A DNA stretch of 64,000 nt. It comes from an uncultured Phycisphaerales bacterium (lineage in GTDB: Bacteria; Planctomycetota; Phycisphaerae; Sedimentisphaerales; Anaerohalosphaeraceae). Position numbers and translations under genes: made by a program. The stretch spans positions 124,001 through 188,000 of the forward strand of contig CALMLO010000036.1 of assembly GCA_937868095.1 (NCBI GenBank). Reading direction: 5' to 3'. Shown in pieces: positions 2,496 to 64,000 of the stretch; position 1 is the first letter of the stretch, and each line of letters starts with the position of its first letter. The notes under the pieces are model-generated. The model was given only the letters and a program-made list of their open reading frames with translations. It was not told where the DNA came from and did no database searches.

Positions 2496-2969
2496 ATGGA
2501 AGAGATTTACGAATCCCTTTTTTCGTCGAGCCGGTTTTTTGCGGAGCAGCTGGCCGGTCTGATTCTGCCGGAAGTTCCTGAGGAAGGCCCCTGGCTTGTG
2601 ATGGTGGGGCCGAATCAGGAGGTCCAGACGGATGACTGGCCGCGTTTTCAGCAAGTGTTTCCGGACCCGCAAGTACTGTTTTCCTATTGTGAGCGAATAG
2701 ATGACGGGCAGGACCCTGTTCTTGGGTCTATCGGGAAGGGCTGTCTGATTGGAAGCGAGCTTTACACGGAGCGGCTCAATGCGGGTTATCTTTTTGTGAT
2801 TCTTCCGGATTACAGCGCTGCGACTGCGCAGACCAATCTGGGGATTCTGGAACTGTTTTTTGCTGAAATGCGGCTTCTTTGCTCTCTTTTGGATAAAAAT
2901 AATCAGCTTCACCAACTTCATCTGAATCATCTAAGCCGGACTTCACCGGTTCTGGGCAAGCATTCTTAG
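2496..2969 (+). CDS. Conserved-looking hypothetical protein downstream of the partner-switch pair
   Basis: A 157-residue soluble protein starting MEEIYESLFSSSRFFAEQLA; GAAGGAT precedes the ATG at 2496. I recognise no family. The middle reads like an alternating alpha/beta fold (PWLVMVGPNQEV, GYLFVILPDYS), and the C-terminal half has a Leu-rich amphipathic stretch (LLCSLLDKNNQLHQLHLNHL) that may form a coiled coil. It has no signal peptide or transmembrane segment. Its position 137 bases after the RsbW-like gene suggests, but does not show, a role in the same switch. Residues 75-90 contain a 'GKGCLIGSELYTERLNAGYLF' surface that could be checked against GAF-like domains. Confidence 0.6.
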   Translation: MEEIYESLFSSSRFFAEQLAGLILPEVPEEGPWLVMVGPNQEVQTDDWPRFQQVFPDPQVLFSYCERIDDGQDPVLGSIGKGCLIGSELYTERLNAGYLFVILPDYSAATAQTNLGILELFFAEMRLLCSLLDKNNQLHQLHLNHLSRTSPVLGKHS

Positions 2970-3305
2970 TGAATTATCTTCCTTGTCTTTGTCTCTGCTG
3001 TTTGCATGTCCTCTGATGGTCCGATAAGATAGTTTTTCCCTATTCGCAGCACACTTCTCTCTTCATGTCTTTTATTGGGCTGGAAGGAGTTGTCTGTTTT
3101 TTCGGAAAGGTCTTCCCTGGCTGGATTTGCTGATTAAGTTCAGAAAAAAAGGTGTCGAAGTTCTTCTTACAGACCGAAAAGGAGGTCGGTATGTATGAAC
3201 GGGAATAAAGTGTTCGGTTAGAAAGGGGACAAGGGAGAAAATTTGGAATTGCACGGGCGGTAAGGCTGAAAAAAGAGGGAACGGCTGAATGGGTTAAGGC
3301 ATTGA
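2970..3305. other. Intergenic region with strong Shine-Dalgarno sites but only mini-ORFs
   Basis: About 336 bases before the YfiR-like gene. A perfect AAGGAGG (3179-3185) precedes ATG 3191, which opens only five codons (MYERE). ATG 3195 in another frame opens eight (MNGNKVFG). No known riboswitch core was recognised. The segment probably carries the promoter and an untranslated leader for the two-gene signalling operon downstream. Confidence 0.4.
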
Positions 3306-4115
3306 ATGCCGTCAAAGCGATGCTTAAAACCTGAGTGTGAACTACGATTGCAAAGGATAAACAGTTCTTCGGCGGGATGTACCGCGCAGAAATGGGCTGT
3401 GATTATTTGTATAGAGATGCTCTGTCTTCTGTTCTTGGGTGGAGTTGGGCGGGCCGATTCCTCTTCGGGTGCGCCAGGAGGTGTTCTGGCCAGTCAGGTG
3501 ATCACGGATTCGGGTAAATCTGCTGAAGAAGTTGAGTATCAAGTGAAGGCGGCATTTATTTACAACTTTATGAAGTTTACCGAATGGCCTCCAGAAAAGA
3601 TGGAAAACGGGGAGCATTTGGAGGGGGATTCTTCTCCTGGGCCGATGCAGATTGGGATTGTTGGGGAGAATCCTTTCGGGAAGGCCTTTGAACCGCTGAT
3701 GGGCAAGAAAATCAAGGAGCGTTCTCTGAAGCTGGTTTTTATTCCGAGTATGGCAGTCTATGTGAAGAAAAACTCCGACAAGAACGCTGCTGCCGAACAA
3801 TATTGGCAGGAGCAGGGAAAACTTCTGCGCAGCTGTCATGTGGTCTTTTACTGCAATTCTGAAAAAAGCTGGCTGACAGAACATCTGCGGGAAGCTCAGA
3901 AACACCCTTTGCTGACGGTGGGAGAGATGGAGGGTTTTCTGAGTTCCAAAGGGATTATCGGCTTTGTGAAAGAAGACAACAAAATTCGGTTTGAAATCCA
4001 TTTGACTCAGGCCGAAAAGCAAGGATTGAAGATCAGTTCGCAACTGCTGAAGCTGGCTCGACGAGTGATACAGGAGAAAGAAACGAATGGAAAAGGAAGT
4101 GCCAACCACTCCTAA
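3306..4115 (+). CDS. YfiR-family (DUF4154) periplasmic protein
   Basis: An exported protein of the YfiR/DUF4154 family, whose Pseudomonas member is a periplasmic redox-sensitive repressor of the diguanylate cyclase YfiN. The N terminus has a long basic lead and a hydrophobic core [19 protein letters not shown] ending in a likely Ala cleavage site. The family core starts at [20 protein letters not shown] and continues through [23 protein letters not shown] and [16 protein letters not shown] to a helix [14 protein letters not shown]. The start is uncertain because no strong ribosome-binding site precedes 3306. It overlaps the hybrid kinase by 29 bases, so it is likely the periplasmic regulator of that kinase's CHASE-type sensor. 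Confidence 0.8.
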
Positions 4116-6672
4116 TGGAGATACAACGGCCGCAGGGCAGAATCATTTCCGCTGGACCATCCGGCGCAAACTCATCTGCGTCATTATGGGGACGTCGGTG
4201 ACGGCTCTGATTCTGGCCGGCTTGATTTTTCTGTTCTGGGACTGGCAAGTGCAGCGTCAAGGTCTGATTCGTGATATGCGGGTGCAGGCAGAAATTGCTG
4301 CGGAAAACTGCAAGGCCGCGGTTCAGTTTGGGGATGTCGATGGGGCCAAGCAAACCCTTCAGGTTTTTCGGGTGAAACCGACGGTGGAGTATGTGTGCAT
4401 TCTGAACCAGGAAGATGAGATTTTTGCTGATTTTTATCAAGGGACCCTGCATAAGAATCATTCTCATGGGGGGGCGGAGAAACTGAAATGTTTGGGGATT
4501 GATTTGAAGGAACTGTCGGAGAAGGACTATTATTTTACGAAGGAGTTTCTGGTTTTATCGCAGAAGATTGTTCTGGATGGGGAGCCCATTGCCCGTATTC
4601 TGGTTTGTTCCAATCTGAAGCCGCTTCGGGAGGCCCTTCAGCGCAGTGCAGTGATTAATTTAAGCATTCTTTTGCTGGCTGCGGTTGCGGCTTATATTCT
4701 TTCGTCCAACCTTCAGCGGCTGATTTCGCGACCGATCCTTTTGCTGGCAGAAGCGGCCAAGCAGGTTTCCAAACGAAAAGATTATTCTGTACGGGCTGAG
4801 CAAAGCAGCCGTGATGAGGTTGGGATTCTGATTGAGGCCTTTAACGGGATGCTTGAGCAGATTCAAAAGGAAATTGAACAGCGTCAAAAGGCCCAGATTG
4901 AACTGATTCAGCACCGGGACCATCTTGAGGAGATGGTTAATGAGCGGACAGCCGAGCTCAGGCAAAGCAATCGGCAGCTCGAAGTGGCTGTGGAGAAGGC
5001 CAATCTGCTGGCCAGACAGGCCCAGGAGGCCAGCCGGGCCAAAAGTGAGTTTTTGGCCAATATGAGTCATGAGATTCGTACGCCGATGAACTCCATTATC
5101 GGCTTCAGCGATATTCTCAACGAAGAACCAGGCGTCGATCCGGAGCATCGGAAATACATCCAGCTGATTCTGAACAACGGCAGAATGCTTCTGCAGCTGA
5201 TTAATGATATTCTGGATTTCTCCAAAATCGAAGCCGGCAAACTGGATACCGAAATTGTAGAGATTTCGCTGCTGGAGTTTCTGGAAGACTTAAATTCGCT
5301 GCTTCGTCCGATGGCGCTGAATAAAGGGCTTGAGTTTGATATTCTGCAGTGCAGCGATTTGCCGTCTGTAATTTATTCGGATCCTGTGCGGGTTCGCCAG
5401 TGTCTGGTGAATCTGGTAAGCAATGCCATCAAATTCACGTCTGCTGGCCATGTCTTTGTTAATGTCTATGTTCAGCGGCAGGAGGACGGCGATTATATTC
5501 GTTTTGATGTGGAGGATACCGGTATTGGTATTCCCAAGGATAAGATTGAAAAGGTTTTTGAGGCCTTTACGCAGGCTGACGGCAGTACAACCCGAAAGTA
5601 CGGGGGTACAGGGCTGGGGCTGACGATCACTCGTCAGCTGGTTCAGCTGCTTGGCGGCAGCATCGAGGTCCGCAGCGAGGAGGGCAAAGGGTCTGTCTTT
5701 TCGATTATCCTGCCGGCGGGGGTGAAGGTAAGTGAGCAGCCGGTGATGAACCGGTATCAGCATTCTGAGTCGGTGGTTGAGGATTTGACCAAAGCCAAGC
5801 CGATACAGGAAGGGCCTCTGCGCGGGCATGTGCTGGTAGCGGAGGACGCCAAAGGCAATCAAGTCCTCATTCGGCTGCTGCTGGAGAAAATGGGGCTTGA
5901 GGTGGAGATTGTTGAAAACGGGCGGGAGGCCGTCGAACGAGCGCTTCAAGGAAAGTTTGATTTGATTTTTATGGATATGCAGATGCCGGTGATGAGTGGG
6001 TATGATGCTTCGCGGATGCTTCGGGAGCGAGGCTGCCGGCTGCCGATAATTGCACTGACTGCCCATGCTATGAAAGAAGATGAGAAGAAATGTGTGGCTG
6101 CCGGCTGCAGCGGCTATCTGCAGAAGCCGATAGACCGGGAAAAACTCAAAGAAGTGCTTTCTACCTACCTTGCCGGAAAGGAAGATGATATGGACAAACA
6201 GGTGGACCGGATACGTTCGGAAGTGGAAAACTTGACGGATTTGTGCCAGAGTGCGGTAGAGGGGCCTCAGGCGATTTCCGAGTCGAAGGCGGCCGACAGC
6301 ACGCCTCCTCCGATTCGATGGGAGGACCTGTCTAAAATTTGTGATGATTCAGAAATATTGCAGGTGGTGGCCCAAACAGTGCTTGAAGAGACTCCATCGG
6401 TGCTTGAGCAGCTTCAGAAGGCGGTGGATTGCCAAGACGTATCGAATGTTCAGCTGCTGGCCCATCGGATTAAGGGAACGGCTCGCAATATGGCGGCTGT
6501 GGAACTGGCTGAAAAGGCCTTTGCCCTTGAATTGGCGGCTAAGGGCAATCAGATGGCGAATGCTGCCTTTATGCTTGGGGAAATTCGGCAGGCCTTTGGG
6601 CGGCTGCGTGCGTTTCTGACGCAAGAAGACTGGATTGAACGGGTCAAAGGAGCAGACTCCGCCGGCTCATAG
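4087..6672 (+). CDS. Hybrid sensor histidine kinase with REC and HPt domains
   Basis: An 861-residue inner-membrane phosphorelay protein. Domain order: transmembrane helix about 29-50, CHASE8-like periplasmic domain to about 180, second helix about 185-208, HAMP to about 262, coiled coil, HisKA with MSHEIRTP (phospho-acceptor His328), HATPase with N box [15 protein letters not shown]1 DTGIGIP and G2 GGTGLGL, REC with [10 protein letters not shown] (Asp630) and LQKP, and a C-terminal HPt with AHRIKGTA (His793). All four phosphotransfer steps are thus in one chain. The start at 4087 lies inside the end of the YfiR-like gene and has a good CAGGAG site. No separate response regulator is adjacent, so the output protein is unknown. 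Confidence 0.92.
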
Positions 6673-6745
6673 GGGCTGTGTCCGCGTCCGTTCGTTTTTC
6701 ATCAGGGACGCGGTGTGTTTTTGAATAGGGCGGGCGGAAGGTCTC

Positions 6746-7090
6746 TTACAAATCGGTGTATTTGGTGCTTCGGCCTTTGGACTTTTCGACGGGATATTTT
6801 TGATTGTTTATCTCGATTTTCCGGCGGGCTGCTTCAAACAGGTCAATTTCTGTTTCATGACAGAAATAAATCAAAAAAGCAAAAACATCGGCGACTTCCT
6901 CTTCGACCCTTTTGCGTTCGATGTCGGTAAGGTGTCTGCTTTGCGAGGAGGATTTCCACAAAAAGTTTTCAAGGAGTTCAGCGACTTCGATTACCATGCC
7001 CTCCGCCAAGTTTTTGGGGTCGTGAAACTGCTGCCAGTCCCGCAGGCGGCGGAATTCGAGCAATTGGTTTTTGAGGTCTTGAAAGTCCAT
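6746..7090 (-). CDS. MazG-fold nucleotide pyrophosphohydrolase (dCTPase/iMazG-like)
   Basis: A 114-residue protein of the short MazG/RS21-C6 type, which hydrolyses (d)NTPs to monophosphates. Visible signatures are FRRLRDWQQFHDPKNLAEGM near the N terminus, IEVAELLENFLW (metal-binding EExxE-like helix, about residues 34-45) and EEEVADVFAFLIYFC (second acidic helix). This N-terminal 'RDW.QFH.PKNLA' pattern separates it from the MazG-like gene at 456-719. It starts ten bases after the cysK stop and is the last gene of the ACT-cysK-mazG run. Confidence 0.88.
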   Translation of the reverse strand: MDFQDLKNQLLEFRRLRDWQQFHDPKNLAEGMVIEVAELLENFLWKSSSQSRHLTDIERKRVEEEVADVFAFLIYFCHETEIDLFEAARRKIEINNQKYPVEKSKGRSTKYTDL

Positions 7091-7100
7091 TTTCTTTCTT

Positions 7101-7988
7101 TCAAAGCAGGGCGGTGCTGAAATATCGTTCGGCGCGGTCGGGCAGGACGGTGGCGATGCTGCCTTTGATTCGTCGGGCGAGCTGACGGGCCGCCCAGACG
7201 TTGGCTCCGGAGGAAATGCCTACCAAAAGCCCGTGCTGGACGCTGAGACGGCGGGTTTCTTCGATGGCATCGTCATCGCTGACTTCTATGACTTCATCCA
7301 CAAGAGAGACATCCAGAATATCGGGGATAAAGCCGTCGCCAATGCCCTGAATCTGATGAAGCCCCGGCTCGTGGCCGAGCAGGGCGGAAACATCCTTTGG
7401 TTCCACGGCGGCAATTCGCACATCGGGCTTGTGTTCTTTCAGGAAACGGCCAATGCCCTGAAGGGTGCCGCCGCTGCCGACACCTGCTGTAAAACAAGCG
7501 ATATCGCCGCTCATTTGTCTCCATAATTCCACGGCTGTCTGTTCATAATGAATGCGGGGATTATCAGGATTTTTGAATTGCTGGGGCACGAACACGCGGG
7601 GGTCTTCGGCTTGCATCTGTTCGACCTTTTCAATGGCTCCGGCAATGTTTTTGTCGGCGGGGGTGAGAATCAGGTCGGCGCCGAGGGCTTTGATGAGTTT
7701 TTTGCGTTCGACGCTCATATTTTCAGGCATGACGATGCAGACCTTGTATCCCATCAGTCGGCCTACGAGGGCGATGCCGATGCCGGTATTGCCGGAGGTG
7801 GGTTCGACGATGATAGAATCGGGCTTGAGTTTGTCGCTGCGCTGGGCCCCTTCGAGCATGGCGAGGGCTACCCGGTCTTTGATGCTGCCGCCTGGGTTGA
7901 GAAACTCAGCTTTGGCGTAAATGGGCTGGCCTCGAAGCTGAATCAGGGGCGTGTTTCCAATTAAATCGAGAATATTGTCTGTGAGCAT
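7101..7988 (-). CDS. cysK: Cysteine synthase A (O-acetylserine sulfhydrylase)
   Basis: A 295-residue PLP enzyme making L-cysteine from O-acetylserine and sulfide in the cytoplasm. The N-terminal IGNTPLIQL, the PLP lysine in GGSIKDR (about Lys41), the substrate loop PTSGNTGIGIA and the phosphate-binding GVGSGGTLQGIG are all present, as is SSGANVWAA near the end. The protein is slightly shorter than typical CysK (about 310). It starts three bases after the stop of the ACT-like gene, so the two are translationally linked. No serine acetyltransferase gene is in the window. Confidence 0.93.
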   Translation of the reverse strand: MLTDNILDLIGNTPLIQLRGQPIYAKAEFLNPGGSIKDRVALAMLEGAQRSDKLKPDSIIVEPTSGNTGIGIALVGRLMGYKVCIVMPENMSVERKKLIKALGADLILTPADKNIAGAIEKVEQMQAEDPRVFVPQQFKNPDNPRIHYEQTAVELWRQMSGDIACFTAGVGSGGTLQGIGRFLKEHKPDVRIAAVEPKDVSALLGHEPGLHQIQGIGDGFIPDILDVSLVDEVIEVSDDDAIEETRRLSVQHGLLVGISSGANVWAARQLARRIKGSIATVLPDRAERYFSTALL

Positions 7989-7991
7989 TTT

Positions 7992-8276
7992 TTAGGACTT
8001 TTTATTTGCTGCAGGATGGTCAAAGACCAGTTTTTTTACTTCGACGCCTTTGACGGCATTCAATTTGGCTGCCAGCTGGTCGGCTGATTTTTCGTCGTCG
8101 GTCATTTCGAGGATCAGCAAGCCGTTCGGAGAGCAGGAGCCGTCGTTGGCTTCGTGAAGGCCCAGCCGAGTTCGGATGCTGCAGCCGTATTCTGTGAGAA
8201 GACGCTGAACCGATTCGACCTGCTGGAGTCGGTCGGTAATATGTACCCCTAAAATGATATGCTTGGAGAGCGGCAT
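7992..8276 (-). CDS. Small ACT-like protein, possibly TM1266/NikR C-domain-like
   Basis: A 94-residue protein reading as one ferredoxin-like beta-alpha-beta fold: KHIILGVHITDR, an amphipathic helix VESVQRLLTEY, the strand SIRTRLGLHE, the strand NGLLILEMT, a second helix ADQLAAKLNAV, and the final strand GVEVKKLVFDH. This pattern matches small ACT/NikR-C-like proteins such as the TM1266 family of putative regulators. No DNA-binding domain is present. It directly precedes cysK with a three-base gap, so an amino-acid-sensing or regulatory role for cysteine synthesis is a reasonable guess, not shown by the sequence. Confidence 0.6.
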   Translation of the reverse strand: MPLSKHIILGVHITDRLQQVESVQRLLTEYGCSIRTRLGLHEANDGSCSPNGLLILEMTDDEKSADQLAAKLNAVKGVEVKKLVFDHPAANKKS

Positions 8277-11616: not shown

Positions 11617-13589
11617 GATGGCCTGACCTTCTTTTTGATATAGTTCAGCAGTCCTGCTGAGAGGAGGATTTCACGTTCACGAGGTGAAAGCGCCAGACGC
11701 CCTTTGAAAACCTCACCTGTTGTACGATTGAAGATTTCTACCTCCTGTGCGTTTTGGATTGCGGCTGTCAAGTCCGGGATTTCAAGTTCGTCGCCTTCCT
11801 TAATTTTGTCATAGTCCGCCGGGTTGGTAAATTCGATGGGGACGATGGCAAAGTTAATAAGGTTGGCCTTGTGGATACGTTCGATGGACTTGGCCAGCAC
11901 GGCTCGCACGCCCAGATACATGGGGCATAAAGCGGCGTGTTCGCGGCTGGAACCCTGTCCGTAGCTTTCACCGGCTGCGACAATGCCCGCCAGACCCTGT
12001 TTTTTCAGGTCGAGACATCGCTGGGCAAAGGTTGGTTTGCCTTCTTCATTGAAGCAGTTAAAAACATATTTGGAATATTCGGGCACATTGGAGCGGTATT
12101 TGAGGAAAGTGCCGGCGGGCATAATGTGGTCTGTTGTGATTTTATCGCCGCATTTGAGCAGGACGCGACCCTTGAGGTTGTCCGGCAGCGGTGCGGGGGA
12201 TTCAGGCACGACGATGGTGGGGCCTCGCACGACCACGGCCGTTGAGATTCTGTCGGGGGGCAGCGGCGGGTCAATCATGGTGTCGTCGATGTGAAACTCT
12301 TTTGGGAATTTGACAGCAGGATATCGCAGACCGACCATTTCTTTGAGGGTTCGGGGGTCTGTAATTTCGCCGAGGATGGCGGAGGCGGCGGCGGTCTCCG
12401 GGCTGACAAGGTAGCACTGGTCGCCTTTGGTTCCAGTGCGGCCGGGGAAATTGCGGTTAAAGGTTCGCAGGGTAACGACGCCGTCGCCTGGGGAAAATCC
12501 CTGGCCAATGCAGGGACCGCAGGCACACTCGAGAATGCGTGCTCCGGCAGCGATGAGGTCGGCCAGCGCGCCATTGGAGGCGAGCATCTCAAGGACCTGG
12601 CGGCTGCCTGGGGCGATGCCGAGTTCGACGGAGGGGTCAATTTTGCGGCCTTTGAGGATTTCGGCGGCTGTCATTAAATCTGCATAACTTGAATTGGTGC
12701 AGCTGCCGAGAACGACCTGTCCGATTTTTCGTCCGGCGATTTCTTCGACGGGTACGACATTATCCGGCGAAGAGGGACAGGCCGCCATGGGTACCAAGTT
12801 GGATAAGTCGATTTCAATCAGCCGGTCATAGGCGGCGTCAGGATCCGCTTCCAGCGGACGATAATGATGAGAACGATGCTGGGCTTCCAGAAACTGTTCC
12901 GTCATTTGGTCGCTGGGGAAAATACTGGTGGTCACGCCTAACTCGGCACCCATATTGGTAATGGTTGCCCGCTGGGGTACGGTGAGTGCTGCCGCGCCCG
13001 GCCCGAAGTACTCTATGACAGAATCCACATTGCCTTTGGTTGTGAGGATACTGAGGAGTTTGAGAATCACGTCTTTGCTGGAGACCCAATCGTTGAGGCG
13101 GCCGGTCAGGCGGACGCCGATAACCCTTGGGCAGGTCATGTAAAAAGCCCCGCCGCCCATAGCCGAAGCAACGTCCAGCCCGCCGGCCCCAATGGCCAGC
13201 ATTCCCAGTCCGCCGCCGGTGGGAGTATGAGAATCGCTGCCCAGAAGGGTTGCTCCGGGTTTGCCGAAGCGTTCAAGATGGACCTGATGGCAGATTCCGT
13301 TGCCTGGGCGGGAGTGATAAACCCCCACCTTTCGGGCAATGCTCTGGAGATAGAGGTGGTCATTGTGATTTTCCGGTCCGAACTGGGCCATATTATGATC
13401 GACATAGCTGACAGACAGCTCCGTGCGAACGCGAGCGATGCCCATCGACTCAAAGAGCAGAAAGGCCGTTGTTCCGGTGGCGTCTTGGGTGAGGGTTTGG
13501 TCAATGCGGATTCCAATGGGCTCGCCCGGCTGAAGCCGACCTTCGAGCAGGTGGCTTTGAAGGATTTTGCAGGTGAGTGTTTGACTCAT
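11613..13589 (-). CDS. acnA: Aconitate hydratase
   Basis: A 658-residue [4Fe-4S] enzyme interconverting citrate and isocitrate in the TCA cycle. The cluster cysteines appear as LGSCTNSSYADL and ECACGPCIGQG; SDSHTPTGGGLG, SSREHAALCP and GDKITTDHIMPAG complete the active site. The length is that of the shorter, mitochondrial-like aconitases rather than the roughly 890-residue AcnA/IRP type. The swivel domain is at the C terminus (from about residue 470). It is the first gene of a minus-strand run with the LOG gene and a secreted protein, with an AT-rich upstream region of about 230 bases likely holding its promoter. Confidence 0.92.
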   Translation of the reverse strand: MSQTLTCKILQSHLLEGRLQPGEPIGIRIDQTLTQDATGTTAFLLFESMGIARVRTELSVSYVDHNMAQFGPENHNDHLYLQSIARKVGVYHSRPGNGICHQVHLERFGKPGATLLGSDSHTPTGGGLGMLAIGAGGLDVASAMGGGAFYMTCPRVIGVRLTGRLNDWVSSKDVILKLLSILTTKGNVDSVIEYFGPGAAALTVPQRATITNMGAELGVTTSIFPSDQMTEQFLEAQHRSHHYRPLEADPDAAYDRLIEIDLSNLVPMAACPSSPDNVVPVEEIAGRKIGQVVLGSCTNSSYADLMTAAEILKGRKIDPSVELGIAPGSRQVLEMLASNGALADLIAAGARILECACGPCIGQGFSPGDGVVTLRTFNRNFPGRTGTKGDQCYLVSPETAAASAILGEITDPRTLKEMVGLRYPAVKFPKEFHIDDTMIDPPLPPDRISTAVVVRGPTIVVPESPAPLPDNLKGRVLLKCGDKITTDHIMPAGTFLKYRSNVPEYSKYVFNCFNEEGKPTFAQRCLDLKKQGLAGIVAAGESYGQGSSREHAALCPMYLGVRAVLAKSIERIHKANLINFAIVPIEFTNPADYDKIKEGDELEIPDLTAAIQNAQEVEIFNRTTGEVFKGRLALSPREREILLSAGLLNYIKKKVRPS

Positions 13590-13823
13590 TCTAAGATCCT
13601 GTCAATTCAAAAGTTATATTTTTTGAACTTTCATCTTTCTAAACTTTTATAGCATAAATAAAGAGATTTTACAAGCAAGGGGATTGATTTGTTATTTTGA
13701 AAAGATTTTTTGAAAAGATTTGTGTAATAATAAGGGGCGTTTTTTGATGATGATTGTCCAAATATAGACAAAGTATCTCTGTAATGGAAAAAGTAGTTCT
13801 TATGGTTTTTGGGAAAAGAGGGT

Positions 13824-14729
13824 ATGGGACCAATTTCGGGAAATCGAGTTGAAATAGAACGAAAAACAGGGAAGTACAAACTTCGCCGGAAGGGCCTTGC
13901 CGGTTTTACGTGGGAGGATATGGAGCGGCTGGAGCGTCTGGTTGAAAAAGGGCTTCGAGCGGTCGGCCTGTACCAAGTCGGCTTTCAGAATCTTTTTGAC
14001 TTTCGCACAGAGCTGATTGAGACGGCTTTTGCGAGATTGCCGGACGCCTTTGACGGGTTTCGAGTGCTTTGGCTGTCGGATTTTCATATTGAGCCGCTGG
14101 AGGGGCTGGCGGAGGCGCTGATTTCACATCTTGCCCCCCTTTCTTTTGACATAGCCATCCTCGGCGGCGATTGTGCCTTTCATTATGACCTGACGGAGGC
14201 GGCGGTTGCGCGGATGCGGACGATTGCAGAGCCGCTGCTGAAACGGGCGCCTGTGTACGGGATTCTCGGCAATCACGACCGGTATGAAATGGGCAAAATC
14301 CTTGAGCAGTGGGGGGTGCGGATGCTTGTGAACGAGCATTGCCGGCTTGAACGCGACGGCCAGGTTCTTTATTTGGCGGGGGTGGACGATTGCCATTATT
14401 TCAAGGGAGATGATTTGGATACGGCGGCTGAAGGGATTCCTTCGGACAGTTTTTCGATCCTCTTGTCTCATTCTCCGGAAATAATTCACAAAACAGACGG
14501 GTATTCCATTGATTTGTGTCTGTGCGGACATACGCACGGAGGACAAGTCTGCCTGCCGGGGGGCTTCCCGCCGGTTATTTGTGCCTCGGTGAGTCGGAAA
14601 TATGCACGCGGACTATGGCAAAAAGGCCGTATGAAAGGGTATACCTCGCGAGGAATCGGTGTTTCCGGGATCCCGGTTCGCTTTTTTTGTCCGCCTGAGG
14701 TTACGCTGCTGACTTTACGGAAGGAATAG
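13824..14729 (+). CDS. Calcineurin-like metallophosphoesterase (YkuE/LpxG-like)
   Basis: An about 301-residue metallophosphoesterase. Metal-binding motifs in order: LWLSDFHIE (D-x-H), ILGGDCAFH (GGD, where GD is usual), GILGNHDRYE (GNHD), LLSHSPE and LCLCGHTHGGQ. This set and spacing match the YkuE/LpxG group, which acts on UDP-diacylglucosamine or other phosphodiesters. The N terminus lacks the usual membrane anchor and instead has a charged segment of about 70 residues. ATG 13824 is one choice; TTG 13809 and ATG 13920 (preceded by GGGAGG) are alternatives. A short tandem TGAAAAGATTTTT repeat lies upstream near 13695-13720. Confidence 0.82.
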   Translation: MGPISGNRVEIERKTGKYKLRRKGLAGFTWEDMERLERLVEKGLRAVGLYQVGFQNLFDFRTELIETAFARLPDAFDGFRVLWLSDFHIEPLEGLAEALISHLAPLSFDIAILGGDCAFHYDLTEAAVARMRTIAEPLLKRAPVYGILGNHDRYEMGKILEQWGVRMLVNEHCRLERDGQVLYLAGVDDCHYFKGDDLDTAAEGIPSDSFSILLSHSPEIIHKTDGYSIDLCLCGHTHGGQVCLPGGFPPVICASVSRKYARGLWQKGRMKGYTSRGIGVSGIPVRFFCPPEVTLLTLRKE

Positions 14730-14829
14730 ATACTTAAAGCGAGAGTTGCGCCTGCGGTGGATGGAACGAAACTGTAAGCTCTTTTCAGTTTGTTAAGTCG
14801 GTAAAACATTAACTTGGGAAGAATTGGGC

Positions 14830-14858
14830 TTGACGGATTTTTCCAAGGAAGGTATATT
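14830..14858 (+). promoter_or_regulatory. Promoter of tRNA-Leu(CAG)
   Basis: A -35 TTGACG (14830-14835), 17 bases of spacing and a -10 TATATT (14853-14858) lie just ahead of the tRNA. This puts the transcription start only a few bases before the mature 5' end at 14870. Confidence 0.65.
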
Positions 14859-14869
14859 TTGCTTTTGCT

Positions 14870-14954
14870 GCGGATGTGGCGGAATTGGCAGACGCGCAGG
14901 CTTCAGGTGCCTGTGGGCATTGCGCTCGTGGAGGTTCGACTCCTCTCATCCGCA
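14870..14954 (+). tRNA. tRNA-Leu (anticodon CAG)
   Basis: An 85-base class II tRNA. The acceptor GCGGATG pairs with CATCCGC, the discriminator is A, and the anticodon loop reads TTCAGGT with CAG. It has the leucine-type long variable arm and a T-arm GGTTCGACTCC. The 3' CCA is not encoded, and a run of five T follows. Confidence 0.93.
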
Positions 14955-15116
14955 TTTTTCACAAGGAGAGTTATTGAGTCTTTTTGTCGGCTATATTTGA
15001 CTGTTTATATCCTCTTTTTTTAACGATTTTCTGTGTTCAATTCCGATATTTTAGTAAAAGAAATGCTGAAATGGGTTGTTAAAATGGGGAATCTGTTGAG
15101 GTTTGGGAGATAAAAG

Positions 15117-15806
15117 ATGGTCAACTGGCTGCTTCTTGCTGCAGCGGCGGGGCCGGCTTCGGATGGTGAAAGTCTGGTGCGCCAGACCATTGATTTGCTG
15201 TGGGAGCAGATTACCGGGCTGACGTGGTTTCAGGCCGTGCTGGCTATTTCGTTTGGGGTGGTTTATTTGCTTTATGGCTGGCGAATCTTCCGAGTGCTGG
15301 TTGTAATCAGTTTTGGGATGATCGGGATGTTTGCCGGGATGAAGGCGGGGGAGCAGTTTGGAAATCTGGTTGTTGGCGGACTGGCAGGGACGGCGATCGC
15401 GGCCTTTTTGGCTGTGCCGCTGATGAAGTGGTGTGTGAGCATTCTTGGGGCCGCCGCAGGGGGGATTCTCACCAGCGGCATCTGGTATGCCTGTCAGCTG
15501 CCTGAACAATATATCTGGGCGGGGGCCATTATCGGAATTGTTGCGGGGGGAATGATTTCCTTTATTCTTCTGAAGGCAGCGGTGATGCTGTTTACCAGTT
15601 TGGGGGGCAGTCTGATTACGATGGTTGGGGTTTTGGCACTGCTTCATGAGTATGAGATGAGCCGGGCGGAGCCGACTCGCTATATTGAAGACTTAATTTA
15701 TCTTCATCCGTGGTTTCTTCCGACGGTAATTATTGTGCCGACGCTGATTGGGATGTTTATTCAGCACAAGTTTATTCAGCACTCCTCCAAGTGGGATTTG
15801 AAGTAA
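15117..15806 (+). CDS. Polytopic membrane protein of unknown function (DUF4203-like)
   Basis: A 229-residue protein with about six hydrophobic segments (roughly residues 38-58, 60-76, 84-101, 105-122, 132-152, 158-175) and a last one near 200-218. Many Gly and Ala fill the segments, as in TMEM198/DUF4203-type proteins. Both N and C ends are short, and the tail is basic (HKFIQHSSKWDLK). A GGGAGAT site precedes the ATG. No catalytic motif is visible, and neither neighbour suggests a function. It lies alone between tRNA-Leu and the convergent glnS. Confidence 0.65.
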   Translation: MVNWLLLAAAAGPASDGESLVRQTIDLLWEQITGLTWFQAVLAISFGVVYLLYGWRIFRVLVVISFGMIGMFAGMKAGEQFGNLVVGGLAGTAIAAFLAVPLMKWCVSILGAAAGGILTSGIWYACQLPEQYIWAGAIIGIVAGGMISFILLKAAVMLFTSLGGSLITMVGVLALLHEYEMSRAEPTRYIEDLIYLHPWFLPTVIIVPTLIGMFIQHKFIQHSSKWDLK

Positions 15807-58587: not shown

Positions 58588-59895
58588 TTACGAAGAAAAA
58601 CGGCGAATGACAAGAACATTATTCTGCCCGCCGAAACCGAATGATTCTTTGAGGACGGTGTGCACGGCGGCCTTTCGTGGGTGGTTGGGCACATAGTCGA
58701 GGTCGAGGGCGGGGTCGGGGTCGTTGAGGTTCATTGTCGGCGGCAGGGTTTGGGTGAGAATGGCCATGACGCAGGTAATCAGTTCTGCGCAGCCGGTTGC
58801 TCCGATTAAGTGGCCGAATTGACTTTTGGGGCTGCTGCAAGGGATTTGATAGGCACGGGGGCCGAAGACGGTTTTGATGGCCAGCGTTTCGATGGCGTCG
58901 TTTTCGGCGGTGCTGGTGCCGTGGGTGCTGATGTAGTCGATATCCTCTGTGCCGATGCCGGCATCCTGAAGGGCGGCCTTGATGGCCTGAACGGCTCCTC
59001 GGGCTTCTTCGTGCATGTCGGTAACCCGAAAGGCGTCGCTGCTGCTGCCGAAGCCGATGATTTCGGCGAGGATTTTGGCTCCGCGTTTTTGGGCGGAGGT
59101 GAGCGATTCGAGGATGACGATGGCGCCGCCTTCGCCGAGGACGAAGCCGTCGCGGCTGGCTGTAAATGGGCGTGAGGCCGTGCCCGGGCTGTCGTTGCGG
59201 GTTGAAAGGGCGGTGAGCCGATTGAAGCCCATTACGCCGAGGGGATGAATCATGGAATGGGCTCCGCCGGCAATCATGATGTCCGCCTTGCCGTGTCGGA
59301 TGAGCATGGCGGCTTCTCCGACGGCCTGGGTGCTGGCGGCGCAGGCGGTCAGGCAGCTTCGGATGACGCCGCGTGCTCCCGTCAGAACGGCCAGATGAGC
59401 GGAAGGCATGTTGGTTTCCTGCTGGAGTTCATGTTCGGGGTTCATCATTGCAAAGGCGGTATCCGTCCAGGCGGCCCAATCCATCTGCTGATTTTGACTG
59501 TTCCAGCCCTTGAGGATTGCCGTAAAAAATGCGTCGCTGTTCATGGCCCCTTCGCCGGCGCCCAGATAGATGCCCATGCGTCTTCGGTCGATGCCGTCGG
59601 CTGGGCTGTCGGTTTCTGTTTCAATGCCGGCCTGACGGCAGGCCTCTTTGGCGGCTCCTAATGCGAAGGAGCTGCCTCGATTGCATTGTTTGTGTCGATC
59701 GGGGTATTTGAGGATTTTGTTTACGTCAAAATTTTTGACTTCTGCATCGAAGGTGGTGGGGTAGGTGGAGGCATCGAACAGTGTTATATAGTTCATGCCG
59801 TGGCGGCCGGTCATCAGCCCTTCCCATGCTGAAGCAACGTCGTTGCCCAGCGGGCAAACAAGCCCCATTCCGGTGATGACGACCCGTTCCTTCAT
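58588..59895 (-). CDS. Beta-ketoacyl-ACP synthase, catalytic (KS-alpha/FabF-like)
   Basis: A 435-residue thiolase-fold condensing enzyme extending an ACP-bound acyl chain by two carbons. The active site is complete: Cys185 in SCLTACAASTQAVG, His in STHGTSTAENDAIE and His in SPKSQFGHLIGATG. It has about 25 more residues than FabF (usually 412), mostly between residues 120 and 165. It begins one base after the stop of a second ketosynthase-like gene that lacks the Cys, as KS-alpha and chain-length-factor subunits do. It may also be an ordinary FabF, but the pairing argues for a heterodimer. Confidence 0.9.
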   Translation of the reverse strand: MKERVVITGMGLVCPLGNDVASAWEGLMTGRHGMNYITLFDASTYPTTFDAEVKNFDVNKILKYPDRHKQCNRGSSFALGAAKEACRQAGIETETDSPADGIDRRRMGIYLGAGEGAMNSDAFFTAILKGWNSQNQQMDWAAWTDTAFAMMNPEHELQQETNMPSAHLAVLTGARGVIRSCLTACAASTQAVGEAAMLIRHGKADIMIAGGAHSMIHPLGVMGFNRLTALSTRNDSPGTASRPFTASRDGFVLGEGGAIVILESLTSAQKRGAKILAEIIGFGSSSDAFRVTDMHEEARGAVQAIKAALQDAGIGTEDIDYISTHGTSTAENDAIETLAIKTVFGPRAYQIPCSSPKSQFGHLIGATGCAELITCVMAILTQTLPPTMNLNDPDPALDLDYVPNHPRKAAVHTVLKESFGFGGQNNVLVIRRFSS

Positions 59896-59896
59896 T

Positions 59897-61216
59897 TTAC
59901 TCTGTCTCCTCGTATCGTTTTAGGACTACGGCGGCTGTGTGGCCTCCAAAACTATAGCCGCAGCAAAGGACCGTGCGAATGGGATGCTTCATCGGCTGTT
60001 TCGGGAAAGAAAGGGCGCATCCTTCGGCTGGTGTCTGGAGGTTGTAAGCGGCGCCGAGCATTTGGTTTTGAATGGCCATTACGGCGGCGGCCATGTCCAA
60101 CGCACCGGCTGCTGAGCCGGTATGGCTCAACTGGCCTTTGAGCGGCCAGACGGGCACGGCGGGGGCGGCCTTGCCGAGTATTTTTTGAAGGGCAGCTGCC
60201 TCTATGCGGTCATCGTGAGGAATCCCTGTGCCGTGAGGGATGATTAAATCCAGCTGGTCGGGGCGGATTTGGGCCTGGGCGAGTGCTTCTTCGATGGCAA
60301 TTTCGAGTCCGCGGCTATTTTTCAGGTGGATGTAGTCGTCTGTATCGGAGACGCTGGAGAAACCGCCGGCAAACTCTGCAAGAATGGGAGCATTGCGCTG
60401 CTTTGCGAAGTTGAGTTCTTCGAGCATCAAAGCGGCGGCGCCTTCGCCGAAAACGGAACCGCCGGCGCCGGCGTCGAAGGGCCGACAGGCGGCTGAGGGG
60501 TTGTCATTGCCGGAAAATGTCGAACGCTTCAGGAGGCATTGGCGAACCATCAGAAGGGGGTTTACTTTGGCCTCGCCGCCGCCGGCCAGCACGACGTCGG
60601 CGTGTTCGCGCTGAATCATTTCGGCTGCTTCGGTGACGGCGATATGTGAGCTTACTTCGCCGGAGGTGATGGTATTGCTGGGGCCCTGAATATCGTGAAT
60701 GATGCCGATATGGCAGGCGAGCATATTGGGCAGGTACTTCAGCAGCCAAAGGGGCGTTACCGTCGGGATGCCCTCGCGTCCCCATTTTTTCATGTCAAAA
60801 CGTCCGTTTTCGGCGGAGACGGCTACGGAAGGGGCGATTTCGAGCAGGTCGCAGCTGATAATGCCGGCGCCAAATTCGATTCCGGTGCGTTGGGACGGAA
60901 GGGTGGGGTGGTCGGGGTCGATGGCCTTGCTGCGGAGCCCGCTGTTTCGCATGGCCTCATCAGCCGCTATGACTGACAATTCAATATCGCGGCACATGAG
61001 TTTGGCGGCTTTTCGATATGCTTTGGGGACATAGTCACGGATGTTGTAATCCGGCACTTCCCCGGCAATTTGGCAGGGCATTTTTACGGGGTCGAAGGCG
61101 CGAATGCGTGCGATTCCGCAACGGCCCTGGAGCAGACCCTCCCACATCTGACGGCTGCTCAATCCGAGGGGGCTGACCGCCCCGACCGCCGTAATTACCG
61201 TACGCCGGTCTGCCAT
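59897..61216 (-). CDS. Ketosynthase-like subunit lacking the active-site Cys (chain-length-factor-like)
   Basis: A 439-residue protein with the ketosynthase fold. Where the catalytic TAC motif should be it reads GPSNTITSGEVSS, with Glu187 at the Cys position. It keeps IIPHGTGIPHDDRIEA and LKGQLSHTGSAAGA, so the two His regions remain. In type II polyketide and aryl-polyene systems the partner subunit (KS-beta/CLF) also lacks the Cys, usually with Gln, and sets chain length or decarboxylates malonyl-ACP. Its start codon overlaps the upstream dehydratase stop by one base (TGATG). The intact ketosynthase follows after one base. Confidence 0.88.
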   Translation of the reverse strand: MADRRTVITAVGAVSPLGLSSRQMWEGLLQGRCGIARIRAFDPVKMPCQIAGEVPDYNIRDYVPKAYRKAAKLMCRDIELSVIAADEAMRNSGLRSKAIDPDHPTLPSQRTGIEFGAGIISCDLLEIAPSVAVSAENGRFDMKKWGREGIPTVTPLWLLKYLPNMLACHIGIIHDIQGPSNTITSGEVSSHIAVTEAAEMIQREHADVVLAGGGEAKVNPLLMVRQCLLKRSTFSGNDNPSAACRPFDAGAGGSVFGEGAAALMLEELNFAKQRNAPILAEFAGGFSSVSDTDDYIHLKNSRGLEIAIEEALAQAQIRPDQLDLIIPHGTGIPHDDRIEAAALQKILGKAAPAVPVWPLKGQLSHTGSAAGALDMAAAVMAIQNQMLGAAYNLQTPAEGCALSFPKQPMKHPIRTVLCCGYSFGGHTAAVVLKRYEETE

Positions 61217-61704
61217 CAGGATTGGTCCTCCGAAGAGTCCTGCTGAACGAATCCCTCCAGCAGTGAACGGAAGGTGTCGGTGAAAACGAAGTTCTCTTCG
61301 GGGAAGCGTTTGCCGGCCAGATTTTTGTCGATATGGCTGAACATCAAACTGATGCCGGCGATGAGGTCCTGGCCGCGTCGGATTTCTCCGTCGGTGCTGG
61401 CGGCCTCCGGGGAGATGTGATCAATTTCGGCGTGGATGGTGATTGTATCTCCCGGGCGGACATAGTGATAAAAGGCGGCCTTTTTAATCTTGGCGAGTAT
61501 TACTTTTTCCTGAAAATTGCGTGCCTGGCCGACTAATATGCCTGCGGTCTGGGCCATTGCCTCGATCATGAGGCATTCGGGCATGACTGGAAAACCCGGA
61601 AAATGGTCATGCAGATGCTCTTCGGCAAGGGTTACGTTTTTGAGGGCAACGGCCCGCTTGCCGCTTTCAAACTCGAGAAATTTGTCAATCCAAATCCACC
61701 GCAT
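61216..61704 (-). CDS. FabZ-like 3-hydroxyacyl-ACP dehydratase (hotdog fold)
   Basis: A 162-residue hotdog protein resembling FabZ, which removes water from 3-hydroxyacyl-ACP. The central signature HDHFPGFPVMPECLMIEAMAQTAG holds the catalytic His (HFPG) and Glu (IEAMAQ); FabZ has MPGVLMIEAMAQ, so Gly-Val is Glu-Cys here. A C-terminal extension of about 25 residues after the hotdog core is acidic. It is the gene directly before the chain-length-factor-like subunit and overlaps it by one base. Confidence 0.85.
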   Translation of the reverse strand: MRWIWIDKFLEFESGKRAVALKNVTLAEEHLHDHFPGFPVMPECLMIEAMAQTAGILVGQARNFQEKVILAKIKKAAFYHYVRPGDTITIHAEIDHISPEAASTDGEIRRGQDLIAGISLMFSHIDKNLAGKRFPEENFVFTDTFRSLLEGFVQQDSSEDQS

Positions 61705-61820
61705 TTGCTGAGCTTTAAATCAAACAGTGTTTGTTTAGCACTTTTCGCGGCGTTCCGCCTTTGCGAAGGTGCGGGCGGCCGGCCTGCTGATGCTGTTTTT
61801 TCATCTGCGGCCGCGATTTT

Positions 61821-62213
61821 TTAACTGTTCAGTTTGGTCTCGAGGAAGTTGACGATTGCGCCGACGTTAAACAGGTCTGCGATTTTGTTTACGTCGGGGT
61901 CTTTTTCGAACTCCGTCAAGTCTGTATGGGGCATGCGGGCTTTGAGTTCCGCCAGACCCTTGGGCGTTAATTTTCCTCCGCTGACAAACTCGGGATTGTT
62001 CAGGATACTTTCGGCCGGAAACAACTCCTCTCGCGGCACTTTGATATTGAAGGTCTTTTCAAGACGGAATACGATGTCGAGAAAATCGATGCTTTCGGCT
62101 CCTAAATCGCCCATGAGGGTGGCGTCTTCGGTTACCTCTTCTTCATCCAGCCCCAAGGCATCGACTAAGACTTCCTGCACCTTTTTGAAAATTTCTTCGC
62201 GGCTGATAGCCAT
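61821..62213 (-). CDS. Long acyl carrier protein
   Basis: A 130-residue acyl carrier protein, against about 78 for housekeeping AcpP. The first half is standard: ALGLDEEEVTEDATLMGDLGAES with the phosphopantetheine Ser41 in GAESIDFLD. After helix 3 there is an insert of about 45 residues (GGKLTPKGLAELKARMPHTDLTEFEKDP) before the last helix VGAIVNFLETKL. Similar long ACPs are known to me from specialised operons in planctomycetes and relatives. It lies between two hotdog dehydratase genes, so it probably carries the growing chain of this pathway only. Confidence 0.87.
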   Translation of the reverse strand: MAISREEIFKKVQEVLVDALGLDEEEVTEDATLMGDLGAESIDFLDIVFRLEKTFNIKVPREELFPAESILNNPEFVSGGKLTPKGLAELKARMPHTDLTEFEKDPDVNKIADLFNVGAIVNFLETKLNS

Positions 62214-62281
62214 AATTTCCTTTCTCCAGTATTAAAACCCTGCTTGCGTTCCCGCTGTCTCCGTATGGCGGGGTGCTGATT

Positions 62282-62755
62282 TTATTCTTCCGAGTATAGA
62301 AGTTTCCACCGGTTTTTTAACTGTTCAATGATTGTTCCGTCCAGTCGGGCCATCTTCGGGTTCTCATCGCCGAGATTAAAATGGCGAAGGGAGAATTTTG
62401 CCTCGACAATGGAGTCCTCGCCGCAGATTCCTTCTCCGCTGAAACTGCTCGCATTCGGCTCGAGGGTGTTGGCCTGCACGTGGTAGTGAATCTGCATTCC
62501 CGGTGCCGCAAAACTTTTATAGCGGACATTGCGGGCCGATTCGAGCAGAATCATGCTGTGCGCGAAATCTTCCGCCTGCCGTACCAGCCAGGAGGCCGAC
62601 TCAATAAGCCCTTCGAGCAGGAGCACTCCCGGCAGGACCGGAAAAATCGGAAAATGGTCCGCCAGGTATTCTTCAGCCAGCGAAACGCTTTTGACAGCCG
62701 AGAGCGATTCCCGCGGTTTCAGAGCCGTAATTTTATCAATTAAGATAAACTTCAT
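62282..62755 (-). CDS. Second FabZ/FabA-like hotdog protein
   Basis: A 157-residue hotdog protein, first gene of the operon-like run. The motif EYLADHFPIFPVLPGVLLLEGLIESA keeps the catalytic-type His (DHFP) and Glu (LLLEGL). It differs from the other dehydratase in the active-site helix, which may mean a different chain length or a dehydratase/isomerase split. The N terminus MKFILIDKITALKPRESL matches the start pattern of the other hotdog gene (MRWIWIDKFLEFESGKRA), indicating an ancient duplication. 68 bases separate it from the ACP gene. Confidence 0.83.
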   Translation of the reverse strand: MKFILIDKITALKPRESLSAVKSVSLAEEYLADHFPIFPVLPGVLLLEGLIESASWLVRQAEDFAHSMILLESARNVRYKSFAAPGMQIHYHVQANTLEPNASSFSGEGICGEDSIVEAKFSLRHFNLGDENPKMARLDGTIIEQLKNRWKLLYSEE

Positions 62756-62875: not shown

Positions 62876-62949
62876 AGGCGGCGGTCGGATTCGAACCGAC
62901 GGATAACGGTTTTGCAAACCGTCCCCTTAGACCGCTTGGGTACGCCGCC
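62876..62949 (-). tRNA. tRNA-Cys (anticodon GCA)
   Basis: A 74-base tRNA on the minus strand. The acceptor GGCGGCG pairs with CGCCGCC, the discriminator is U as is usual for cysteine tRNA, and the anticodon loop TTGCAAA gives GCA. The T-arm is GGTTCGAATCC. CCA is not encoded. Confidence 0.94.
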
Positions 62950-63299
62950 AAAGACATCGTTTCAGAGGAAAACTTTACCTTTCTGTGCTGTTTTTTTCAA
63001 GAAGAAATTCTTTGGGTTTTTTTCGGTTTATGCGGCCGGCGTACTGAGGCCGGGGTGTTCTTGGTGCTTCAAGGGATGGGCGAGGATTTTGGATTTATTC
63101 TAAGTTCGTATTTTCAAGGGAGTTGCGGCGAGTTTGCTTTCTTTTCTTTTTTATTTTTTTCTATTCCGGATGAATTGCTTGCAAATTTTGGCAGGGGGAT
63201 GTATATTTACCGAGTATTTGTTCTATGTTAATCGCTGAGAGGAGGCCCTGTTGGCGAGAGTGGGTGTCTTGTTCCTGTATTTTTTGCGGACAGGTTTTT
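62950..63299. other. Leader region of the Cas3 gene
   Basis: 350 bases between tRNA-Cys and cas3. It is T-rich in the middle (CTTTTCTTTTTTATTTTTTTC near 63140-63163). It contains the promoter listed below but no credible gene and no CRISPR repeat. Confidence 0.45.
63179..63207 (+). promoter_or_regulatory. Promoter of the cas3 operon
   Basis: A -35 TTGCAA (63179-63184), 17 bases of spacing and a -10 TATATT (63202-63207) lie about 90 bases ahead of the cas3 ATG at 63300. Confidence 0.55.
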
Positions 63300-64000
63300 A
63301 TGGGCAAGGAGGAGTATTACGCGCATTCAGACCCGTCCGGCGCAAGGCCGGATGAGGGAGGCCGATGGCAGCCGTTGGGTGAGCATCTTGAACAAACGGC
63401 TCAATTGGCTCGGGACTTCGCAGAGGCGTTTGAGGCGGGCGAGTGGGGGTATTTAGCGGGGCTGTGGCATGACAGCGGCAAATTCAGCGAAGAATTTCAA
63501 CGTTTTCTCAGAGAGTCATGCAATGCGCACATTGAGCAGCGGAGCCGGGTCGATCATTCCACGTATGGTGCCCAGAAGGCCTATCAGAAATGGCCGCAAG
63601 GAGAAGGCAAAACCCTTGCTTATGTGATTGCGGGACATCATGCCGGCCTTCCTGACGGCCGTTCTAACGAAGAGTCTTGCCTGACAAGAAGGATTGAAAG
63701 AAGATTACCCTATCAGTTCCACTGTCCGGAATCACTGTTTGAGCAAAAACAGCCAACTCTGCCCTTTGCTCTGGACAGGCAAAGGTTTTGTTTTGAACTT
63801 GTTTTCTTTATCCGAATGCTGTTTTCCTGTCTGGCTGACGGCGATTTTCTGGATACGGAAAAGCATATAGCCCCTGAAAAGGCCGGCATTCGCGAGAAAG
63901 ATAAGGTTGAATTCAACAGGTTATACGAGAAGCTGGAAAGCCATCTTTCCACATTGCAGGAACAATCTGCTAAGACATGGGTCAATGCTATCCGCTCCGG
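63300..64000 (+). CDS. cas3: CRISPR-associated Cas3, N-terminal HD nuclease part (3' truncated by the window)
   Basis: An open frame from ATG 63300 runs off the right edge (233 full codons visible). It reads as the HD-nuclease domain of type I Cas3, which degrades DNA selected by Cascade. Motifs in order: YYAHSDPSG (His9), LGEHLEQTA (His29), GLWHDSGKFSEEFQ (His57-Asp58), VDHSTYGAQ (His86), AGHHAGLPDG (His113-His114) and LFSCLADGDFLDTE. The helicase half is expected beyond 64000. The pattern 'GLWHD.GKFSEEFQ' with 'H.GLPDG' fits I-C-like and related Cas3, but the subtype cannot be fixed. ACAGG stands a few bases before the ATG. Confidence 0.88.
   Translation, partial: MGKEEYYAHSDPSGARPDEGGRWQPLGEHLEQTAQLARDFAEAFEAGEWGYLAGLWHDSGKFSEEFQRFLRESCNAHIEQRSRVDHSTYGAQKAYQKWPQGEGKTLAYVIAGHHAGLPDGRSNEESCLTRRIERRLPYQFHCPESLFEQKQPTLPFALDRQRFCFELVFFIRMLFSCLADGDFLDTEKHIAPEKAGIREKDKVEFNRLYEKLESHLSTLQEQSAKTWVNAIRS

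What the first reader, a model, noticed from the sequence alone, without database searches (positions are those of the whole stretch)
63300..64000. Type I CRISPR-Cas locus begins at the right edge
The frame from ATG 63300 shows a full HD-nuclease motif set of Cas3 and is still open at the last base. Cas3 is often the first gene of a type I cas operon, and a good promoter stands before it. The rest of the operon and the array should lie to the right.
Basis: partly seen in the sequence, partly recalled or inferred. Interest (0 to 1): 0.6.

Follow-up and report, generated by a model that had tools for sequence, protein, structure and literature searches.

The report
Ordinary type I-C CRISPR-Cas locus

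Summary
The frame from ATG 63300 stays open to window-equivalent 65507 and encodes a 735-aa Cas3 with an HD nuclease half and a superfamily 2 helicase half. It is followed in one orientation by cas5c, cas8c (csd1), cas7c (csd2), cas4, cas1c and cas2. Then come three copies of an identical 32-nt type I-C repeat, which run into the contig end. Cas5c, Cas7c, Cas8c and Cas1c each exceed the curated cut-off of their subtype I-C NCBIfam model, and the best solved-structure relatives are type I-C proteins. Same-genus Phycisphaerae genomes carry the same operon in the same order at mostly 68-92% protein identity, with arrays of a similar repeat. An internal ATG behind a GGAGG at Cas8c residue 449 fits the known hidden Cas11c small subunit. 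Two details of the reading need correction: the helicase box is DEVQ rather than DEAH, and the promoter is only a 9-of-12 consensus match. Verdict: observation confirmed, interpretation supported, nothing novel. The same genome also holds a type III-A locus on another contig.

The parts
63300..64000 (+). cas3, first 233 codons (HD nuclease domain). The gene continues beyond the window to window-equivalent 65507 (735 aa in all).
   Evidence: TIGR01596 3.5e-27. Full protein: TIGR01587 cas3 helicase core 1.8e-36; Cas3 structures 8zns and 8g9u at 4e-142 and 9e-141.
63179..63207 (+). promoter-like site (TTGCAA-17-TATATT) upstream of cas3; a weak consensus match only
62876..62949 (-). tRNA-Cys (GCA), the nearest gene upstream of cas3, in the opposite orientation; marks the left border of the locus

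Best explanation
This is a complete type I-C CRISPR-Cas locus: cas3-cas5c-cas8c-cas7c-cas4-cas1-cas2 followed by a CRISPR array. By homology, Cas1, Cas2 and Cas4 insert spacers; Cas5c cuts the array transcript at the repeat hairpin; and Cas5c, seven Cas7c, Cas8c and an internally translated Cas11c form the Cascade that finds the target. Cas3 is then recruited to unwind and degrade the target DNA. Shown here: the genes, their intact frames, their order, the repeats and the predicted repeat hairpin. Inferred from family knowledge: every biochemical step.
For: All seven genes are open and pass curated family cut-offs, with subtype I-C models for cas5, cas8, cas7 and cas1. The best solved relatives are D. 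vulgaris and other type I-C Cascade chains, and the 8d3l Cas4-Cas1 chains. Three identical 32-nt repeats at 65-66 nt spacing follow cas2, and none occur elsewhere in the genome. The repeat folds into a 7-bp hairpin at -14 kcal/mol. Relatives carry the same gene order. An internal ATG preceded by GGAGG lies at Cas8c residue 449, where solved Cas11c chains begin (Cas11c described in PMC7684278).
Against: The array is cut by the contig end after the third repeat, so its length is unknown. No convincing protospacer was found for the two complete spacers, so activity is not shown.
Confidence: 0.98

Rival explanations
1. The locus is a type I-C system that has lost activity: genes intact but silent, or with a small decaying array.
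For: Only three repeats are visible and no protospacers were found.
Against: All seven frames are intact. The repeats are identical, and the array is cut by the assembly rather than ended by degenerate repeats.
Confidence: 0.1
2. The frame at 63300 is a stand-alone HD-domain protein or a different helicase-nuclease, not Cas3 of a CRISPR operon.
For: From the window alone only the HD domain can be seen.
Against: The helicase half, six further cas genes and the repeats all follow on the same contig.
Confidence: 0.005

Closest known systems
Type I-C (Dvulg) CRISPR-Cas of Desulfovibrio vulgaris
   Same: Cascade made of Cas5c, Cas8c and Cas7c only, no Cas6, an internal Cas11c start (PMC7684278), and a 32-nt repeat ending in GTGGATTGAAAC (the D. 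vulgaris repeat is from my own knowledge). Best solved-structure matches for Cas5, Cas8 and Cas7 are this system.
   Different: Sequence divergence only. No difference in gene content was seen.
Type I-C loci of Phycisphaerae/Planctomycetota MAGs (L006 CALEDR010000010.1, L007 JAKPDO010000047.1, L012 DLFY01000018.1, L027)
   Same: Same seven genes in the same order with about 65-92% protein identity (one Cas4 segment of L007 at 55%). L006, L007 and L027 also have an array after cas2.
   Different: Different repeat loop (GCCCGCTTCACGCGGGC in L006 and L007 against GCCCGCCGTGTGCGGGC here), and a different tRNA or no tRNA upstream.

Membership tests
CRISPR-Cas subtype I-C | Cas3 with HD nuclease and superfamily 2 helicase domains in one chain | tested here: met
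CRISPR-Cas subtype I-C | cas8c (csd1), the signature gene of the subtype | tested here: met
   TIGR01863 1.9e-167, 558 bits against cut-off 218.65
CRISPR-Cas subtype I-C | cas5c that replaces cas6; no cas6 in the operon | tested here: met
   TIGR01876 2.7e-59; the operon is fully accounted for by seven genes and no cas6 is among them
CRISPR-Cas subtype I-C | cas7c (csd2) | tested here: met
   TIGR02589 1.1e-108
CRISPR-Cas subtype I-C | adaptation genes cas4, cas1c and cas2 downstream | tested here: met
   TIGR00372, TIGR03640 and TIGR01573, each above its cut-off
CRISPR-Cas subtype I-C | adjacent array with a hairpin-forming repeat of about 32 nt | tested here: met
   three identical copies at 65-66 nt spacing; hairpin -14 kcal/mol
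CRISPR-Cas subtype I-C | Cas11c made from an internal start in cas8c | tested here: inconclusive
   ATG at residue 449 behind GGAGG, matching where Cas11c chains begin; translation not testable here
CRISPR-Cas subtype I-C | interference against a matching target with PAM | not testable with these tools
   needs an assay

The most novel reading that the evidence does not exclude
The type I-C and type III-A systems of this genome might cooperate, for example by sharing crRNAs or acting on the same invaders. Nothing here tests it, and the two use different repeats.
Probability: 0.05. Interest if true: 0.3.

Novelty: already known. Interest (0 to 1): 0.08.

Why it matters
It matters mainly as annotation: an intact, canonical type I-C immune locus in a Phycisphaerae genome, and a case where a window-edge prediction made from sequence alone proved right when tested.

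Tried and rejected
The continuation of the array on another contig was sought and not found: only three repeat copies exist in the assembly with up to 3 mismatches. Targets for spacers 1 and 2 were sought in viral contigs (exact 24- and 26-mers, none), in phage records (one 86% match over 29 bases to an Escherichia phage, E 0.3, taken as chance) and in the own genome (only the array itself). I considered a tRNA-borne island: a tRNA-Cys stands upstream of cas3. Two relatives (L007, L027) have a tRNA-Gly a few hundred bases upstream instead, but L006 and L012 have none, and I did not look for attachment-site repeats, so I do not claim an island.

Full report
Observation. The ATG at window 63300 opens a frame that runs to the last base. 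Its 233 residues match the Cas3 HD endonuclease domain (TIGR01596, 3.5e-27, above the curated cut-off) and Pfam Cas3_HD and HD. The candidate metal-binding motifs lie at 63381, 63468, 63552, 63630 and 63834.

What lies beyond. The window is G000:C36:124001-188000 and the contig runs to 195194. The 8395-base stretch L002 holds seven genes in one orientation. L002 position plus 62799 gives the window-equivalent position. The genes are cas3 501-2708, cas5c 2729-3388, cas8c 3385-5094, cas7c 5127-6008, cas4 6014-6688, cas1 6685-7716 and cas2 7735-8025. In window numbering, cas3 ends at 65507, cas5c starts at 65528, cas8c at 66184, cas7c at 67926, cas4 at 68813, cas1 at 69484 and cas2 at 70534. The cas8c and cas1 starts overlap the stop codon of the gene before by 4 bases, as expected of one operon.

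Identity. NCBIfam names Cas5c, Cas8c/Csd1, Cas7/Csd2 and Cas1c of type I-C, each above its cut-off. Cas4, Cas2 and the Cas3 HD and helicase-core domains also pass their cut-offs, and Pfam agrees. Full-length Cas3 scores below the cut-off of TIGR02621, which is the type I-G model and so not expected to fit. Sequence comparison with solved structures finds Cas3 of 8zns and 8g9u, the D. vulgaris type I-C Cascade subunits, and the 8d3l Cas4-Cas1 chains as the best matches. Cas3 carries helicase motifs PTGGGKT, LDEVQ, CSATQ and QAAGRCNREG.

Array. After cas2 there are three identical copies of GTCGCCCGCCGTGTGCGGGCGTGGATTGAAAC at 65-66 nt spacing. The third spacer is cut by the contig end, and no other copies exist in the assembly. 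CC precedes all three copies, so the repeat unit may be one or two bases longer. The repeat RNA is predicted to fold into a 7-bp stem. The spacers have no match elsewhere in the genome and no convincing match in the viral or phage sequences searched.

Cas11c. Solved Cas11c chains align to Cas8c residues from 450-451 on. This cas8c has an internal ATG at residue 449 with GGAGG five bases before it. That fits the internal start described for D. vulgaris (PMC7684278). Translation from it is inferred, not shown.

Relatives. Loci L006, L007 and L012 (records titled Phycisphaerae, Planctomycetota and Phycisphaerales MAGs) and the same-genus genome behind L027 carry the same seven genes in the same order. 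L006, L007 and L027 are followed by arrays; L007 has 12 repeats in view and L027 has 44 motif matches. Ten of 59 genomes searched (the own genome included), among them four of six in the same genus, have cas8c. The four planctomycete alignments to Cas3 begin at residue 1 or 2, supporting the ATG at 63300.

Mechanism. From established knowledge of type I-C systems: adaptation by Cas1-Cas2-Cas4, crRNA processing by Cas5c, target recognition by Cascade, and target degradation by Cas3. None of these steps was tested here.

Verdict. The locus is a canonical member of a well-studied subtype with no unusual feature found.

Noticed in passing
L025 (G000:C18:1-8312), outside the window: A second CRISPR-Cas system in the same genome: type III-A (Cas10/Csm1, Csm2, Csm3, Csm4, Csm5, Cas1, Cas2) with at least 13 repeats (GTTGATGAATTTCCCTGATGAATAAGGGATTGAAAC), cut by both contig ends.
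   Followed up: partly
58588-62755, strand -: A run of genes that reads like a fatty-acid or polyketide-type cluster: two FabZ-like dehydratases, an acyl-carrier-like protein and two ketosynthase-like proteins, left of the tRNA-Cys. Read from the translations only.
   Followed up: no
L010 4474 and 13546-15338: In the Melioribacteraceae relative, the array has at least 28 repeats, and one further ATTGAAAC match stands about 150 bases before the cas3 alignment begins. It may be chance.
   Followed up: no
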